This document shows, in pieces, positions 1-7,664 of a DNA stretch of 64,000 bases. The stretch is taken from NCBI RefSeq assembly GCF_000439435.1, contig NC_021846.1:186001-250000 (forward strand), written 5' to 3'. Under the pieces are notes generated by a model, which saw only the letters and a list, made by a program, of their open reading frames with translations, made no database searches and had not been told where the DNA came from. A program made the position numbers and the translations under genes. The stretch comes from Spiroplasma taiwanense CT-1 (GTDB lineage: Bacteria; Bacillota_I; Bacilli_A; Mycoplasmatales; Mycoplasmataceae). The stretch's first letter is position 1. Each line of letters begins with the position of its first letter.

Positions 1-1
1 A

Positions 2-415
2 TTAATTGATTTAATTAAATCTAATGTTGAAATTGAACAATACGATAAATATTTATTAAATATTTCAGAAGCTTTGATTGATTTTTACAAAAATTTTTAT
101 AAATATAAAACAAAAACATTATCTATTGAATCTCAAGAAGTTGTAAATTATAAAATAACATTAATGGCTATGAATTATTTGAGTAAACTTGAAGAAAAAA
201 CTAACAGCTTAATTAGTAGTAAATATTATAATATGCCAATCGAGATAAAATTAGAATGAATCAAACATATTGAAAATAAAAGAGATGAAGTAAATGAAAT
301 TATGAATAATAATGATATAGCTTATAAAAAAGCATTAAATATTATTTTTGGAAAAAAACAAAATTATAATAGTTCTGATATTGAATACTATAAAAATTTT
401 TTTGGAGGTAAATAA
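2..415 (+). CDS. Hypothetical helical protein, C-terminal part (truncated by window edge)
   Basis: Open from the first bases of the window to a TAA at 413-415, reading the UGA at 257-259 as Trp; the N-terminus lies outside. About 137 residues are visible, rich in Lys, Glu, Asn and Ile, with long predicted helices and no membrane segment. I do not recognise the family. The stop is one base before the next start codon, and the GGAGGT Shine-Dalgarno of the next gene lies inside the last codons, so it is almost certainly co-transcribed with, and probably translationally coupled to, the AAA+/radical-SAM genes downstream. Confidence 0.75.
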
Positions 416-416
416 A

Positions 417-1505
417 ATGAGTATGTCTGCAGAGGAAATTCTAATAAATTGTGAGAAACAATTTTCTTTTTTAAAAAAAGATATTGAAGTTTTAATTTCT
501 TATATTAACGAATTACTAGCTCAGTGTAAAAAGATAGATAATTCAAATTTTTTTCAACAACAAATAAATTATTTTTTGGAAAAATTAAAAATTGAAAATA
601 AAGAATTAATTGAAAATGCTTTTGAAAAAGAAATTTCAAGTGATGTTCATGTGGAAATTGAAAAGTATCATGAAATACAAAGATTTGCAGAGAAAAAGCG
701 AAATAATATTACTGACTTAAAAACAAAAATATTTCTTTTAAAAAGTGATATTATAAAAAAAGAACAAATGCAAATAAAAAAATCATTAGAAAAAAATTAT
801 TTTTCAAATATTTTAGATTTAAAAAAACAATTAATAATGAATTATAAAGATGATCAAGATAAATTATTTATTAAAAAATTATTTGAAGATAAAGAACATC
901 TTTTTATAAATAAAAAGAAGGATAAAATATTGAGTTATATTTTTATTGAGTTAGAAAAATACAAAACTTCAAATAAAATAATATTCGAAGAAATAATTTC
1001 AAATTCGATAGAATTATATAAAGATGATCAAGATGTATTTGCAATAGTAAAAAATGAAATGAAATTATTATCAGAAAATAAAGATAATGAGAATATAAAT
1101 GAAATTATAAGTAAGTATTTGTATAATTCATCCAAATTGGCAGAACAAGAAGTTATTAGAAAAGATAATGTTTTAAAAATTGTAAATGCAATAAGAAAAG
1201 TTGGTTATATTGTTAACCCGAATAATATAAGAAAAATTAAACAAAAAAATCTTATAATTATACATGGAGAAAAAATTACAGGCGAAACTGCAGATTTTGC
1301 TGTTAGACATGATGGTAGCTTTATCTATAACTGAGAGGGTTTTGAAGGACGCCAACATGATGAAGATGCTAAAGCTTTTATAAAAAAACTTAAAGATTTT
1401 AATATTCATGCAAGCAATGAATTTAATAAGCAATATAGAGAACCAAAATATATTGCTAAAAGAAAAAAAGTAATAACTGAAAATAATACAAAGAAGGATA
1501 AGTAG
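417..1505 (+). CDS. Coiled-coil protein with DUF1257/DUF2997-like C-terminal domain
   Basis: 362 residues. The ATG at 417 is preferred over an upstream in-frame ATG because GGAGGT lies at 405-410. Residues 1 to about 245 are charged, helical and coiled-coil-like. From about residue 253 the protein changes to a small alpha/beta domain: a helix with the pattern AIRKVGYIV, a strand around LIIIHGEKI, then ADFAVRHDG and WEGFEGRQHDEDAKAF. The order 'G-Y ... A-D-F ... DG ... GF-G ... acidic ... helix' recalls the small DUF1257 (Ycf35)/DUF2997 proteins that sit beside AAA ATPases in other bacteria; here the usual Cys after GF-G would be His/Asp. That resemblance is by eye only. UGA at 1332-1334 is Trp. 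Role unknown; probably a partner or substrate adaptor of the ATPase that follows. Confidence 0.7.
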
Positions 1506-1513
1506 GTAAAGTA

Positions 1514-3316
1514 ATGAGTACAAAAAAAAAATTAAATCAATTAAAAAATCTTATTGGAATTAAAAAGGCAATAATTGTTGAAGGAAATATTGATGATATT
1601 TATGAATACAAAGGAAGATATATTAATATTCATGAAATTATTTTTAATATTTTTGATGAAAAAAAGTATTCTGATAAATTTATATTTGATCAAAACTCTG
1701 GATTAAGAGGTTCAAAATTTTCAAATTTACTTTTAAATGATAATCAAATTTCTAATCAACAGTCTTTAAATGATTTTGAAGAGTTATTTTCTGATAATAC
1801 TCAGTCATCTTCAGAGGACTCTATAAAATTTAAAAAACCAATTGATTTTTTTTCAATTTTAAATAAAAATTTAAATAGAATAGATAATAAAAAAATAGTT
1901 TTTTTAGCAGATTATACTAATTTTGTTTTTGCTGATAATTCATTAGAATTAGAAGATAGAATTGTATTAACGGAATTTTCAAAATCATTAAAAGAATCTG
2001 AATTTTCAATTTCAAAAATTGATGAGTTATCTAATTGTATTATTTTTTTAACTAAAAAAATAAATCAATTACCACCAAATTTATATTTAGATAATCCAGA
2101 AATTTTAATACTTACTATTCCAAAACCAAATAGAGAGGAAAGAAGAGAATTTCTTTCAACTCTAAAATCATTAATATCTGTAACAGATATTTCATTGGAA
2201 TTTGAAAATATAGTGGATGCTACAGAAGGTTGAACTTTAAAGGAATTATCTCATTTTGTAAAGTTTTCTTGTAATTTTGCACAACCAATAACATTTAATA
2301 AATTATTTAATATTTACAATTATGGAGAAAAAATTTCTCCATGAGAAGAATTAAGTTATGAAAAAATGTTAAGTATTAAAGATGTTTTGTCTTCAAAAGT
2401 AATTGGTCAAGAAGATGCAATTTCAAAAGTAATAAAAATTATTTATAAGGCATATACAGGACTAAGTGGAGTTACTTATTCTTCAAAACGTAGTAAACCA
2501 AAAGGAACATTATTTTTTGTGGGTCCAACAGGTACAGGAAAAACAGAGTTAGCAAAAGCAATAACAACATTTTTATTTAATGATGAAACAAATTTAATTA
2601 GATTTGATATGTCAGAATATGGACAAGAAAATTCTGATCAAAAATTAATTGGGGCTCCTCCGGGCTATGTTGGTTTTGAAGGTGGAGGTCAATTAACAAA
2701 TGCAGTAAAAGAAAAACCTTTTTCTGTAATTCTTTTTGATGAAATTGAAAAAGCAAATCCTAAAATATTTGATAAATTCTTGCAAATTTTGGAAGATGGA
2801 AGATTAACAGATAATACAGGACAAACAGTAAGTTTTAGTGAAACTTTTATAATCTTTACTTCAAATATTGGTGCAGCAGAAGTAAGTCCAAATCAAGAAA
2901 GTACTTTAATATATAATGAATTTATAAGAAAAGTGCAAAACCATTTTACTAATGAATTAAATCGACCAGAACTACTTGGAAGATTTGGAAATAATATAAT
3001 TCCATTTAATTTTATTAAAGATTTATCTTTAAAAGCAAAAATTATTAAGCAAAAGGTTAAACCATTGCAAATTGCTATTTATGAAAAATACAAAGCTAAA
3101 TTATATATTGACCTAAATGATCAAAATATAATAGAGATCATTTTACAAAATGCAGATGAAAGAAGAGGAGGAAGAGATGTTTTAAATTCTTTAGAAACAA
3201 ATCTTGTTGATCCATTATCTGAATTTATATTTAAAAATTTACAAAATATTAAACCAGGAGTTAAAATTCAAGTTTTTGTACAACAAGGAAAAATTAACTT
3301 TAATATAAATGGCTAA
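1514..3316 (+). CDS. Two-module AAA+ ATPase; C-terminal module ClpB-like
   Basis: 600 residues in one frame, with UGA-Trp at 2231-2233 and again near 2341. Residues 1 to about 250 look like an AAA-type domain without a Walker A loop, ending in a segment (NCIIFLTKK, then PNREERREF) typical of the sensor/arginine-finger half of Cdc48-like domains. From about residue 285 there is a complete ClpB/HSP100 second-domain set: GPTGTGKTEL (Walker A), FDMSEY, APPGYVGFEGGGQLT, ILFDEIEKA (Walker B), LEDGRLTD and FTSNIG (sensor 1), then a C-terminal lid with ADERRGGRD. There is no ClpB N-domain, middle coiled coil or ClpX-type ClpP loop. It starts 8 bases after the previous gene and its stop overlaps the radical-SAM start. 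Probably an energy-driven remodelling factor; substrate unknown. Confidence 0.85.
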
Positions 3317-3905
3317 TTTAAATATGGGTAAATTTTTAATGAATAGTGAAATTGAAGGACCTGGAATAAGATTTGTGATTTGATTTCAAGGATGTAATAT
3401 TGGGTGTAAGGGATGTAGTAATCAAGAATTATTAGCATTAGATAAAAAAATGTTTATGCCAACAACATACATTTTTGAAAAAATTTTGGAAGCCAAATCT
3501 AAGTTTAATATTGAAGGAGTTACTCTTTTGGGTGGTGAACCATTTTTACAACCTGATGGACTCAGTGAATTGGTTATTTGATGTCAAAAAAATGGCTTAA
3601 CAGTTATTTGTTTTACAGGCTATATTTATGAAAAATTACTTGAAGAATATAGCGAAATTTTAACTAAAATAGATATTTTAATCGATGGACCTTTTATTAT
3701 GAAACTATTAGATAGAAAAAGACGACTTGTTGGAAGCAAAAATCAAAGAGTCATTAAAATAACAGATAAATATAAAGACTGTGATTATTTTGAGCAACCA
3801 CATTCAGAGGCAGAAATTCAAATTTATAATAATAGACTTTCTCTAAATGGAGATGGAGTGATTTTTGATAATGAAGAAGGGGAATTTAATTTTAAATTGA
3901 AATAA
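3309..3905 (+). CDS. NrdG/PFL-activase-like radical SAM protein
   Basis: 198 residues; the ATG at 3309 overlaps the stop of the ATPase by 8 bases, so the two are translationally coupled. It opens with EGPGIRFVIWFQGC and the cluster-binding triad C-x3-C-x2-C (CNIGCKGC), followed by a glycine-rich SAM strand (LLGGEPF) and a later LIDGPF. This is the minimal half-barrel layout of anaerobic ribonucleotide reductase and pyruvate formate-lyase activases. No glycyl-radical enzyme is present in the window, so a classical activase role is not supported by context. The close linkage to an AAA+ protein and a DUF2997-like protein suggests a modification or redox partner of that complex (inference). UGA codons inside the gene are read as Trp. 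Confidence 0.85.
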
Positions 3906-4911: not shown

Positions 4912-6749
4912 ATGAATTCAACAAATAGCAGTAGATATCAATTAATATTTGATATTACTATTTCTGCAATATTTATTTCTTTAGCAATAAGTTTAAAAAT
5001 TATCTTTTTCTTTATACCAAGATTTGATTTATCAATTTATATTTTATGTATTTCTGCACTTTTTTTAAAAAATAAAATTGCACTTTTAGTTACAATTGGG
5101 GTTAGCTTATTATCTTTTTTTGTAGAAAAAAGTATTATTGAATGGGCAAGTTATATGTTAGTTTCAATGCTAATTTGTACGATTTTTATTTTAATAAGAA
5201 AATTTATATTTAAAAATAAAATTATTTTATATGCACTTTTACCAGTTTTAGTTTTATTATACTCAACAGTTTCACTTTTTACTTGAATTGGTCTTTATGG
5301 AAAAATTGAAAAATACGCATTGTATTTAAGTAATTTATCTTCTGCATATATTATTTGTTTTTTATATACATTTGCTACACCACTAATATTTTTACCAACT
5401 CTTAAATTATTTGAAAATTTATTTTTTAAATACTCATCTTGCTTTAATAAGATTTTTATTAATTATTTTGATTCAAAAGATGATAATTTAATTTCTATTT
5501 CAAATCAAAAAATTAATTATAAAGTTCAGCTAGTTATAATGATATTTTCAATGATGCTACTAAGCGCTTACTTTAGCTATTTGCCTTACAAATTAGCGGT
5601 ATGATTTAATATTTATTATGTAATTTCTATTCTAATAGTTCCTATTTTAATGTTGTTTGTTACACCCTTATGGATGAAAATGGCAAAAAGAAAGGGGAAT
5701 AAAAATGTTTTACAAGTTAATTCAATTGGAATACTAATTGCAATAATTTTTACTTTTAGTTCATTTTCAACAACAAATATTCTTTTTTCAAATATTTCTA
5801 TTTTTGTAGGAATAATTTTATTTGGTAGTTTTATAGCAGGTTTTTTGCCAATTAATATAGAAGCTATAAAAAGTTATGAAAAAAGAAATAATTTAAAAAA
5901 TAAAACAAGCAAATATAATGCATTATTTGAGTTTTGACTTATTCCCTTGCCTTTTTTATTAGAATTATTTACAAAATCAACATATGTTATGTCTTTATTT
6001 ATGTTTATTCAATTTTAATTCCTATTCTTATTATTTGTAATAAGAATATTATGTCAGAAAAAAATGTACTAATTTTTGATAAAAAAGCTATTAATACACT
6101 AAAACAAAATAAAGATTTTTTCATTCAAGTATTTATTCAAAATTATTTTATTGGATTTATAAAATTTTTAGAAATATCTTTAAGCATTTTCTTTTTTATA
6201 AATTTATATCAAAATGAAATAACATTTAATTTTGATATAAAACAAAATTATGTCTACTTATTTATTATTTTTAGTTTTGTTTTAAAGTATTTAAGTCAAG
6301 AAATTTTTAAATTATTTAACTACAATAATCCAAAAATAAATAGAGTGGGTATTTTTTTTAGTATTTTTTGGAATATCTACTTTATTAATAATTTATAGAT
6401 ATATTAATTTTGCAAATGCAAATTTAATATATAGAATTACCTTATTAGTTTTAATGATATTTTTTGGAATAGGATACTCAATAATAGAAAAAACTAAAAT
6501 ATTAAAATATAAAAGTATGGTTAGCAAAAATAAATTTTCACTAGCAATGATTATTGATCATGTAATGGGAATGCACTATTTTCATTATTAATTACATCAA
6601 TATTTTTTGTATTAATCATATTTATTAAATTAAGTTTAATAAATTTATTAATTTTAATTAGTTTTATTTTATTATTTGCAATTTTATTATTAATAACTGA
6701 ATTAGCATTTAATTTAAAACGTATAAAGTCTATTTTAAATAAAATATAA
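4912..6749 (+). pseudogene. Broken polytopic membrane protein (transporter-like)
   Basis: A good ribosome binding site (AAGGGAG) precedes the ATG at 4912. Reading UGA as Trp gives an uninterrupted membrane protein to about 6015. The frame then moves three times: near 5990-6010, at the T8 run 6352-6359, and near 6570-6577. Joined, the pieces give about 610 residues with a dozen or more hydrophobic helices. The first 150 residues, with four to five closely spaced helices, recall an ECF-type substrate-binding subunit, and the rest an MFS-like carrier; both are weak impressions. The hydrophobic pattern continues across each frame change, so this was one gene. No substrate can be inferred. Confidence 0.7.
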
Positions 6750-6800: not shown

Positions 6801-7664
6801 ATGATAAAAATAAATGAGAAAGAATTTTTAATCGGTAATAATGATTTCGATGGAAAATCTACTGATTTTGAATCTCCACCAAAAATGGTGAAAGTTGAAA
6901 GTTTTTGAATTGATGAAACTTCAGTAACAAATCAGATGTTTAAAGAATTTGTGGATGAAACAAATTATTTAACTGAAGCAGAAAAAGTAGGGTATTCATA
7001 TGTATTTCACTTACAATTAACTGAGGAAACAAAAAAGAACAATGAAAAATTAGCAGGTTTAGATTGATGATATGAAGTAAATGGTGCATTTTGGAAATGT
7101 CCTTATGGACCTAATTCAAATATTGATAATATTTTAGATCACCCTGTTGTACATGTTTCAAAAAATGAGGCGGTAGAATATTGTAAATGAGCTAAAAAGA
7201 GATTGCCAACAGAAGCGGAATGAGAACTTGCAGCAAGAGGTGGAAAATATAATACTAAATTTCCTTGGGGAAATGAAAAAAAAGTAGAAAATAAATGAAT
7301 GTTAAATATTTTTCAAGGTAACTTTCCATATGAAAATACATTAGAAGATGGTTATTTAGGAACTTCACCTTGTACTGCTTTTCCTCCAAATTCTTATGGA
7401 ATTTATCAAATGCTTGGTAATGTTTGAGAATGGTGTTAAAATCCTAAAGGTATAGATTTTGAAGATTTTAATAACAAAACTGCGATTCACTTTTGAGAGA
7501 GTTGCCAAAATTATTCAAATAAATTAGTAGCAATTAGAGGAGGTTCTTTTTTGTGTTGTGATGATCTCTGTGAAAGATATAAAGTTTATTCTAGAAATGG
7601 TAACTATGCAAATTCATTTTTATCAAATTTAAGTTTTAGATGTGTAAGTGATCAGGAAGAATAA
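6801..7664 (+). pseudogene. Formylglycine-generating enzyme (SUMF1/FGE) family, one in-frame UAA
   Basis: Continuous frame of 287 codons except for a TAA at 7437-7439. Family features are otherwise complete: VESFWIDETSVTNQMF near the N-terminus, HPVVHVS, RLPTEAEWELAARGG, FPWGNE, GNVWEWC, and the catalytic RGGSFLCCDDLCERY, which keeps both active-site cysteines at the C-x4-C spacing of true FGE (family knowledge). The UAA falls directly after GNVWEWC, where homologues may carry a Trp or small residue; one transition would turn a UGA Trp codon into UAA. FGE oxidises a cysteine in sulfatases and the wider family includes other modifying enzymes. No sulfatase is seen nearby. The protein would be cut at about 212 residues, losing the catalytic cysteines. 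Confidence 0.85.

What the first reader, a model, noticed from the sequence alone, without database searches (positions are those of the whole stretch)
2..3905. Uncharacterised AAA+ / radical-SAM operon with a DUF2997-like partner
Seen: four co-oriented genes with gaps of 1 and 8 bases and an 8-base overlap. They encode a helical protein, a coiled-coil protein ending in a GF-G-type small domain, a two-module AAA+ ATPase with a ClpB-like second module, and a CxxxCxxC radical-SAM protein of NrdG type. Known: DUF1257/DUF2997 proteins cluster with AAA ATPases and iron-sulfur/radical-SAM proteins in other bacteria without an assigned function. Inference: a remodelling machine whose partner is modified or redox-controlled by radical chemistry. 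It is intact in a genome that is losing accessory genes, so it is probably under selection.
Basis: partly seen in the sequence, partly recalled or inferred. Interest (0 to 1): 0.75.

Follow-up and report, generated by a model that had tools for sequence, protein, structure and literature searches.

The report
Five-gene helicase, unfoldase, radical-SAM operon
A Spiroplasma carries a conserved five-gene machine, a nucleic-acid helicase with a Clp-like protein unfoldase and a radical-SAM enzyme, that recurs gene for gene on plasmids of unrelated bacteria and looks like an undescribed defence-type system that became fixed in this lineage.

Summary
The four genes are real and placed as described (code 4), but the window cuts the operon. 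Its first ORF is the tail of a 763-aa protein, and a 1280-aa Upf1-like helicase precedes it. The full operon is helicase, B, coiled-coil, AAA+, radical-SAM. The same five genes in the same order occur on alpha-, beta- and gammaproteobacterial plasmids, where B ends in a PIN nuclease. A second branch pairs the AAA+ and radical-SAM genes with kinase, helicase and nuclease. Mollicute variants without radical-SAM sit in restriction/defence islands. In Spiroplasma the set is vertical, under purifying selection and nearly universal (38 of 60 family genomes; one clear loss). The PIN domain is gone. The radical-SAM protein is not NrdG or a PFL activase: 13 genomes that keep it, this one included, have no detectable NrdD or glycyl-radical protein. 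The AAA+ has a dead first ring and an active ClpB-type second ring. The coiled-coil C-terminus is weakly but reproducibly DUF2997-like, with a possible DUF1257-like stretch before it. Best reading: a Mokosh-like helicase/effector conflict system gated by a radical-SAM-modified adaptor and a Clp-type unfoldase. Function is inferred, not shown.

The parts
1..415 (+). Gene B, 3' end only (137 of 763 residues). The whole gene is G000:C2:184124-186415 (likely ATG 18 bases in). Upstream, same strand and outside the window, lies the SF1 helicase gene G000:C2:180289-184131 (1280 aa). B N-terminus is homologous to the N-terminus of plasmid PIN-domain proteins; the PIN domain itself is absent.
417..1505 (+). 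Coiled-coil adaptor-like protein, 362 aa: conserved MS N-terminus, long coiled coil, C-terminal small domain (about residues 250-335) that is DUF2997-like, with a short DUF1257-like stretch before it
   Evidence: AlphaFold model poor (pLDDT 57)
1514..3316 (+). Two-module AAA+ ATPase, 600 aa: D1 (about 1-280) without Walker A, EGN-DDxY motif; D2 with Walker A (337), pore loop GYVG (384), Walker B DE 409-410, ClpB/ClpC-like
3309..3905 (+). NrdG/PflA-like radical-SAM protein, 198 aa, CNIGCKGC cluster motif; orphan (no NrdD or glycyl-radical protein detected in the genome)

Best explanation
The window holds the 3' part of a five-gene operon: SF1 Upf1/Mokosh-like helicase, B, coiled-coil/DUF2997-like adaptor, Clp-type two-ring AAA+ unfoldase, orphan NrdG-like radical-SAM enzyme. 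It belongs to a phylogenetically broad, often plasmid-borne family of helicase/effector conflict systems. Shown: gene order, homology, domain state, vertical fixation in Spiroplasma, purifying selection, and that no glycyl-radical substrate for the radical-SAM protein is detectable here. Inferred mechanism: helicase plus B form the nucleic-acid-sensing and effector complex (in proteobacteria B would cut through its PIN domain; in Spiroplasma that nuclease is lost and the helicase complex would block or remodel instead). The coiled-coil protein clamps or inhibits that complex. Its terminus or small domain is modified or matured by the radical-SAM enzyme. The AAA+ recognises the coiled-coil protein through the inactive D1 ring and pulls on it with the active D2 ring, switching the complex on or recycling it.
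For: Five genes in identical order on plasmids of Acinetobacter, Photobacterium, Moellerella, Polaromonas and Leisingera, with PIN_4 at the B C-terminus in all five (3e-6 to 7e-24). Homology of the Spiroplasma genes to these: coiled-coil hhalign 98.5% over 308 columns, B N-terminus 85% over 217 columns. AAA tree puts Spiroplasma, Mollicute-mobile and plasmid forms in one clade, SH-aLRT 97. Helicase scores 324 bits against Mokosh MkoA without the kinase, the plasmid helicase 340, other COG1112 helicases of the family 60-157. Mollicute mobile copies lie beside restriction, AIPR, Z1 and HATPase genes. Orphan radical-SAM: own genome and 12 others keep the orthologue without detectable NrdD or Gly_radical. 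One Spiroplasma MAG lacks coiled-coil and radical-SAM together while keeping helicase, B and AAA. dN/dS 0.06-0.34 for all five genes. D1 without, D2 with Walker A in every member checked.
Against: Near-universal vertical inheritance in Spiroplasma is unlike a typical accessory defence system and would fit a housekeeping role. No nuclease is recognisable in the Spiroplasma set. Radical-SAM is dispensable in the Mollicute mobile branch. No experiment shows defence; PADLOC flags only the helicase (Mokosh-like) and the AAA (candidate PDC-M37B), not the system. The adaptor and gating steps are inference; the coiled-coil model is too poor to test contacts.
Confidence: 0.55

Rival explanations
1. A housekeeping RNA or ribosome-surveillance machine. 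An Upf1-like helicase with a (degenerate) PIN-family partner and a Clp-type unfoldase would resolve stalled ribonucleoproteins in Spiroplasma; the mobile forms elsewhere would be derived defence versions.
For: Fixed and vertical in Spiroplasma; AAA as conserved as LeuRS (76% mean against 73-86%); helicase plus PIN recalls eukaryotic Upf1/SMG6 (established knowledge, analogy only).
Against: Lost outright in one Citri-clade species and absent from several other genera of the same family; sporadic on plasmids, 2 of 398 Pseudomonadota genomes with a strong AAA hit, both of the kinase-helicase type; B, coiled-coil and helicase evolve fast (41-58% within the genus).
Confidence: 0.22
2. The radical-SAM protein is an ordinary NrdG/PFL activase that happens to sit beside a chaperone ATPase.
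For: Best named match is NrdG (TIGR02491 5.5e-29, below its cut-off).
Against: No NrdD or Gly_radical protein detected in this genome and 12 others that keep it; where NrdD exists a separate NrdG paralogue (33-38% identical) sits beside it; AAA and radical-SAM genes adjoin in several phyla.
Confidence: 0.04
3. A DUF1257/DUF2997 (Ycf35) redox-type system, as in cyanobacteria and planctomycetes, with a Clp ATPase in place of Ycf46.
For: DUF2997-like C-terminus, DUF1257-like stretch before it and MS N-terminus; planctomycete DUF2997, coiled DUF1257 and NrdG-like triads; cyanobacterial duf2997-ycf35-fed7 cluster (PMC4284462).
Against: Profile matches are short and weak; the ATPase differs from that of those loci (no match to this AAA profile at 1e-5); helicase and B have no counterpart seen there.
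Confidence: 0.12
4. A disaggregase/protein-quality system that extends ClpB.
For: D2 is ClpB/ClpC-like with GYVG pore loop.
Against: The genome has separate Clp-type ATPase genes, the best AAA_2 match among them; D1 lacks Walker A; the operon partner is a helicase.
Confidence: 0.07

Closest known systems
Mokosh (type I MkoA; type II MkoC) anti-phage system
   Same: COG1112/Upf1-type SF1 helicase; P0005 scores 324 bits to MkoA over residues 68-1244. Kinase plus helicase also occur together in the sister branch.
   Different: No kinase, PLD or NERD on the Spiroplasma helicase; four extra conserved partners (B, coiled-coil, AAA+, radical-SAM) that are not part of Mokosh as far as I know.
PADLOC candidate PDC-M37 (component B)
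   Same: P0003 matches M37B over both modules (residues 12-455, 1.4e-26).
   Different: No other operon protein matches any PDC-M37 model; I found no published mechanism for the candidate.
ClpB/ClpC (Hsp100)
   Same: Two AAA modules aligned over full length (Foldseek 5e-33); D2 Walker A/B and GYVG pore loop.
   Different: D1 has no Walker A; no ClpB-type N-domain; ClpB family score 261 against cut-off 1232 bits.
NrdG / PFL-activating enzymes
   Same: Fer4_12 core, CxxxCxxC, similar size.
   Different: Below family cut-offs; no glycyl-radical substrate detected in the genome; linked to the AAA+ gene in several phyla.
DUF2997 / DUF1257 (Ycf35) cluster
   Same: C-terminal domain aligns with DUF2997 in register; order DUF1257-like then DUF2997-like in one chain; NrdG-like neighbour in some planctomycetes.
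   Different: Fused to a long coiled coil, with a Clp-type ATPase; sequence match weak.

Membership tests
Mokosh | COG1112-type SF1 helicase similar to MkoA/MkoC | tested here: met
   MkoA 5.8e-97, 324 bits
Mokosh | Kinase (type I, from memory) or PLD/NERD nuclease (PMC10952713) on or beside the helicase | tested here: not met
   No such domain in P0005 or P0006; so not filed as Mokosh
NrdG / glycyl-radical activase | CxxxCxxC radical-SAM core | tested here: met
NrdG / glycyl-radical activase | Cognate NrdD or other glycyl-radical enzyme in the genome | tested here: not met
   No PF13597 and no PF01228 match in the own genome or in 12 others with the orthologue
ClpB/ClpC | ClpB-type D2 ring with its catalytic motifs | tested here: met
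ClpB/ClpC | D1 ring with Walker A | tested here: not met
   No GxxxxGK[ST] in the first module of any of 22 members
DUF2997 (PF11211) | Match over the Pfam gathering score | tested here: not met
   No hit in hmmscan at E 1; so not filed as a DUF2997 member
DUF2997 (PF11211) | Profile-profile similarity in register, above shuffled controls | tested here: met
   61-90% for combined alignments, shuffled at most 6%; Spiroplasma set alone only 3%
DUF1257 (PF06868) | Similarity of the stretch before the DUF2997-like domain | tested here: inconclusive
   27-37% over 22-28 columns, score 22-24 against shuffled maximum 15
Plasmid helicase-PIN-coil-AAA-rSAM cassette | Same five genes in the same order | tested here: met
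Plasmid helicase-PIN-coil-AAA-rSAM cassette | PIN nuclease at the C-terminus of B | tested here: not met
   No PIN signal in 17 Spiroplasma B proteins by profile comparison
Anti-phage defence system | Protection against phage | not testable with these tools
   needs plaque assays

The most novel reading that the evidence does not exclude
A new class of nucleic-acid conflict system in which an orphan radical-SAM enzyme modifies a coiled-coil DUF2997-like clamp that a half-dead Clp ring then threads, to arm or reset an Upf1-like helicase/nuclease. Spiroplasma would have domesticated a nuclease-less version into its near-core genome.
Probability: 0.3. Interest if true: 0.85.

Novelty: new variant of a known kind. 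Interest (0 to 1): 0.6.

Why it matters
It joins four chemistries (helicase, nuclease, Clp unfolding, radical chemistry) in one transferable unit found across distant phyla, with a minimal nuclease-free form fixed in a genus with very small genomes. It gives a concrete, testable partner set for an orphan NrdG-like enzyme, for the DUF2997-like domain, and for PADLOC's mechanism-less PDC-M37B ATPase.

Tried and rejected
AlphaFold of the coiled-coil protein gave pLDDT 57, so no fold search was run on it. Viral contigs gave only D2-level Clp relatives among nearly all of the best 80; no phage record encodes the PIN-type B; no E. coli genome holds DNA similar to the Moellerella coil-AAA-rSAM segment. 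Promoter and terminator scans were no better than shuffles. The idea that the radical-SAM protein is NrdG was rejected. A conserved glycyl-radical-type glycine in the small domain was rejected: the loop glycines vary among radical-SAM-bearing members. Papers searched describe no such five-gene set as far as the hits were read; subscription papers and bioRxiv are mostly not held.

Full report
WHERE IT IS. The window is G000:C2:186001-250000 of a 1,086,278-base genome in two contigs, one of 1,075,140 bases. From memory this matches Spiroplasma taiwanense CT-1. The genes read under genetic code 4 (TGA = Trp). The window start cuts the operon: reading 10 kb further upstream (L007) shows five tightly packed genes. 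An 805-aa gene, leuS by its sequence, lies just upstream in several genomes, and a nitroreductase-like gene follows 204 bases downstream.

WHAT THE PARTS ARE. The 1280-aa protein is an SF1 helicase (AAA_12 1.3e-37, AAA_11 5.2e-26). In PADLOC it matches Mokosh MkoA at 324 bits over residues 68-1244, without the kinase; other COG1112 helicases of this family score 60-157 bits. The AAA+ protein is ClpB-like in its second module. The AlphaFold model is good (pLDDT 87) and Foldseek aligns both modules with ClpC/ClpB. The first module has no Walker A in any of 22 members, while the second has Walker A in all and the GYVG pore loop in 21 of 22. The radical-SAM protein has a CxxxCxxC cluster motif and a NrdG-like core but falls below the NrdG cut-off. 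Gene B has no credible Pfam hit.

THE SAME FIVE GENES ELSEWHERE. A protein search of plasmids found the identical order, helicase, 'PIN domain-containing', hypothetical, AAA, '4Fe-4S single cluster', in Acinetobacter, Photobacterium, Moellerella, Polaromonas and Leisingera. PIN_4 lies at the C-terminus of B in all five. The Spiroplasma coiled-coil protein aligns with the plasmid one at 98.5% probability over 308 columns, and the B N-terminus at 85% over 217 columns. The PIN domain is not detectable in 17 Spiroplasma B proteins. Rhizobium and other genomes carry AAA and radical-SAM genes beside a fusion of about 2100 residues, kinase-DUF4011-helicase-MTES_1575 in the one scanned, and in one of them an ORF starting MSGPK follows. 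Clostridia carry helicase/nuclease, kinase, MSGPK coiled-coil, FHA, radical-SAM, AAA and PP2C genes in a row. In an AAA tree the helicase-B-coil forms (Spiroplasma 17, Mollicute mobile 4, plasmids 5) make one group with SH-aLRT 97, apart from the kinase branch (quick method, long branches flagged, midpoint root).

DISTRIBUTION IN THE HOST FAMILY. Of 60 genomes of the family, 38 carry the radical-SAM orthologue and 39 the full-length AAA. These include 20 of 20 genomes of the own genus, 3 of 3 of a second genus, 13 of 14 of genus g5, and the single genomes of two more. Eight further genera have no radical-SAM orthologue. All 17 loci read show the five genes in order; one has three ORFs inserted between coiled-coil and AAA, and its helicase is cut by the stretch fetched. 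One g5 genome retains only a broken helicase remnant. One draft MAG keeps helicase, B and AAA but has lost coiled-coil and radical-SAM together, which hints that these two act together. Pairwise dN/dS is 0.06-0.34 in three close pairs. AAA and radical-SAM are slow (76% and 72% mean identity in the genus), helicase, coiled-coil and B faster (58, 50 and 41%).

A MOBILE RELATIVE. Mycoplasmopsis lipofaciens, Metamycoplasma spumans and two Spiroplasma genomes carry a second version (helicase, B, coiled-coil, AAA, no radical-SAM next to it), in three of four beside methylase/ResIII genes or AIPR, HATPase and Z1 genes. The own genome holds a broken copy of it at C2:136.7-143.3 kb. This places the family in restriction/defence neighbourhoods.

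THE RADICAL-SAM ENZYME IS AN ORPHAN. NrdD (PF13597) and Gly_radical (PF01228) were sought in the same 60 genomes. The own genome and G093, G203, G244, G265, G334, G402, G404, G405, G406, G409, G410 and G418 keep the orthologue (its frame is split in G418) but have neither. Where NrdD is present, its own NrdG paralogue (about 29-38% identical to this protein) lies beside it (for example G387 and G077). So the enzyme here is very unlikely to be a ribonucleotide-reductase or PFL activase; a partner in the operon is the simplest substrate. That last step is inference.

DUF2997/DUF1257. Pfam finds neither in the coiled-coil protein. Profile-profile comparison of its C-terminal domain with DUF2997 from planctomycete and other genomes gives 74% for the Mollicute mobile form, 61-70% for mixed sets and 90% for the widest set, always in the same register; shuffled DUF2997 profiles reach at most about 6%. 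The Spiroplasma set alone gives only 3%. A DUF1257-like stretch directly before it scores 27-37%, above shuffles but very short. The widest set mixes in Clostridial MSGPK proteins whose homology to the others is itself not shown by profile.

MECHANISM. Shown: components, order, homology, D1 without and D2 with catalytic motifs, orphan radical-SAM, vertical fixation. Inferred: helicase plus B sense and act on nucleic acid; the coiled-coil protein is the regulated clamp; the radical-SAM enzyme modifies it; the AAA+ threads or releases it. I put 0.55 on a conflict/defence-type origin and action, 0.22 on a housekeeping surveillance role in Spiroplasma, the rest on other readings.

LITERATURE. DUF2997-ycf35-fed7 clusters are recorded in cyanobacteria (PMC4284462). 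A radical-SAM effector beside vWA-MoxR-FtsH systems is described in PMC7159879, a different arrangement. I found no held paper that describes this five-gene set; the library is incomplete.

Noticed in passing
G000:C2:136700-143300 (L179:1700-8350), outside the window: Broken second copy of the related helicase-B-coil-AAA system (mobile, radical-SAM-less type): helicase, coiled-coil and AAA fragments with frameshifts, about 40-65% identical to the intact copy in another Spiroplasma.
   Followed up: partly
window 6801-7439: ORF resembling a formylglycine-generating/sulfatase-modifying-type domain (WELAARGG, MLGNVWEW), apparently cut short at 212 aa.
   Followed up: no
window 4912-6398: Membrane protein that appears split into two overlapping ORFs (4912-6018 and 5934-6398), possibly a frameshifted transporter.
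   Followed up: no
L182:9542-10937, L219:6853-8208, L220:5640-7188, L181:776-2038: DUF2997, coiled-coil-bearing DUF1257-like and NrdG-like radical-SAM genes side by side, mostly planctomycetes; an unexplained triad of its own, with a further coiled-coil gene upstream.
   Followed up: partly
L308:9506-19602, L313, L314, L315: AAA and radical-SAM genes followed by a ~2100-aa protein (in L308 kinase-DUF4011-helicase-MTES_1575 nuclease fusion); in L315 a MSGPK ORF follows.
   Followed up: partly
L008 (draft Spiroplasma MAG, G399): Operon with helicase (separate contig), B and AAA but without coiled-coil and radical-SAM genes: joint loss of the two.
   Followed up: partly
coiled-coil proteins of all branches: Nearly invariant Met-Ser at the N-terminus (MSGPK, MSMS, MSH), shared with DUF1257 proteins (MSHF); reason unknown.
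   Followed up: no
L174:8150-11377: Three ORFs inserted between the AAA and coiled-coil genes in one g5 genome.
   Followed up: no
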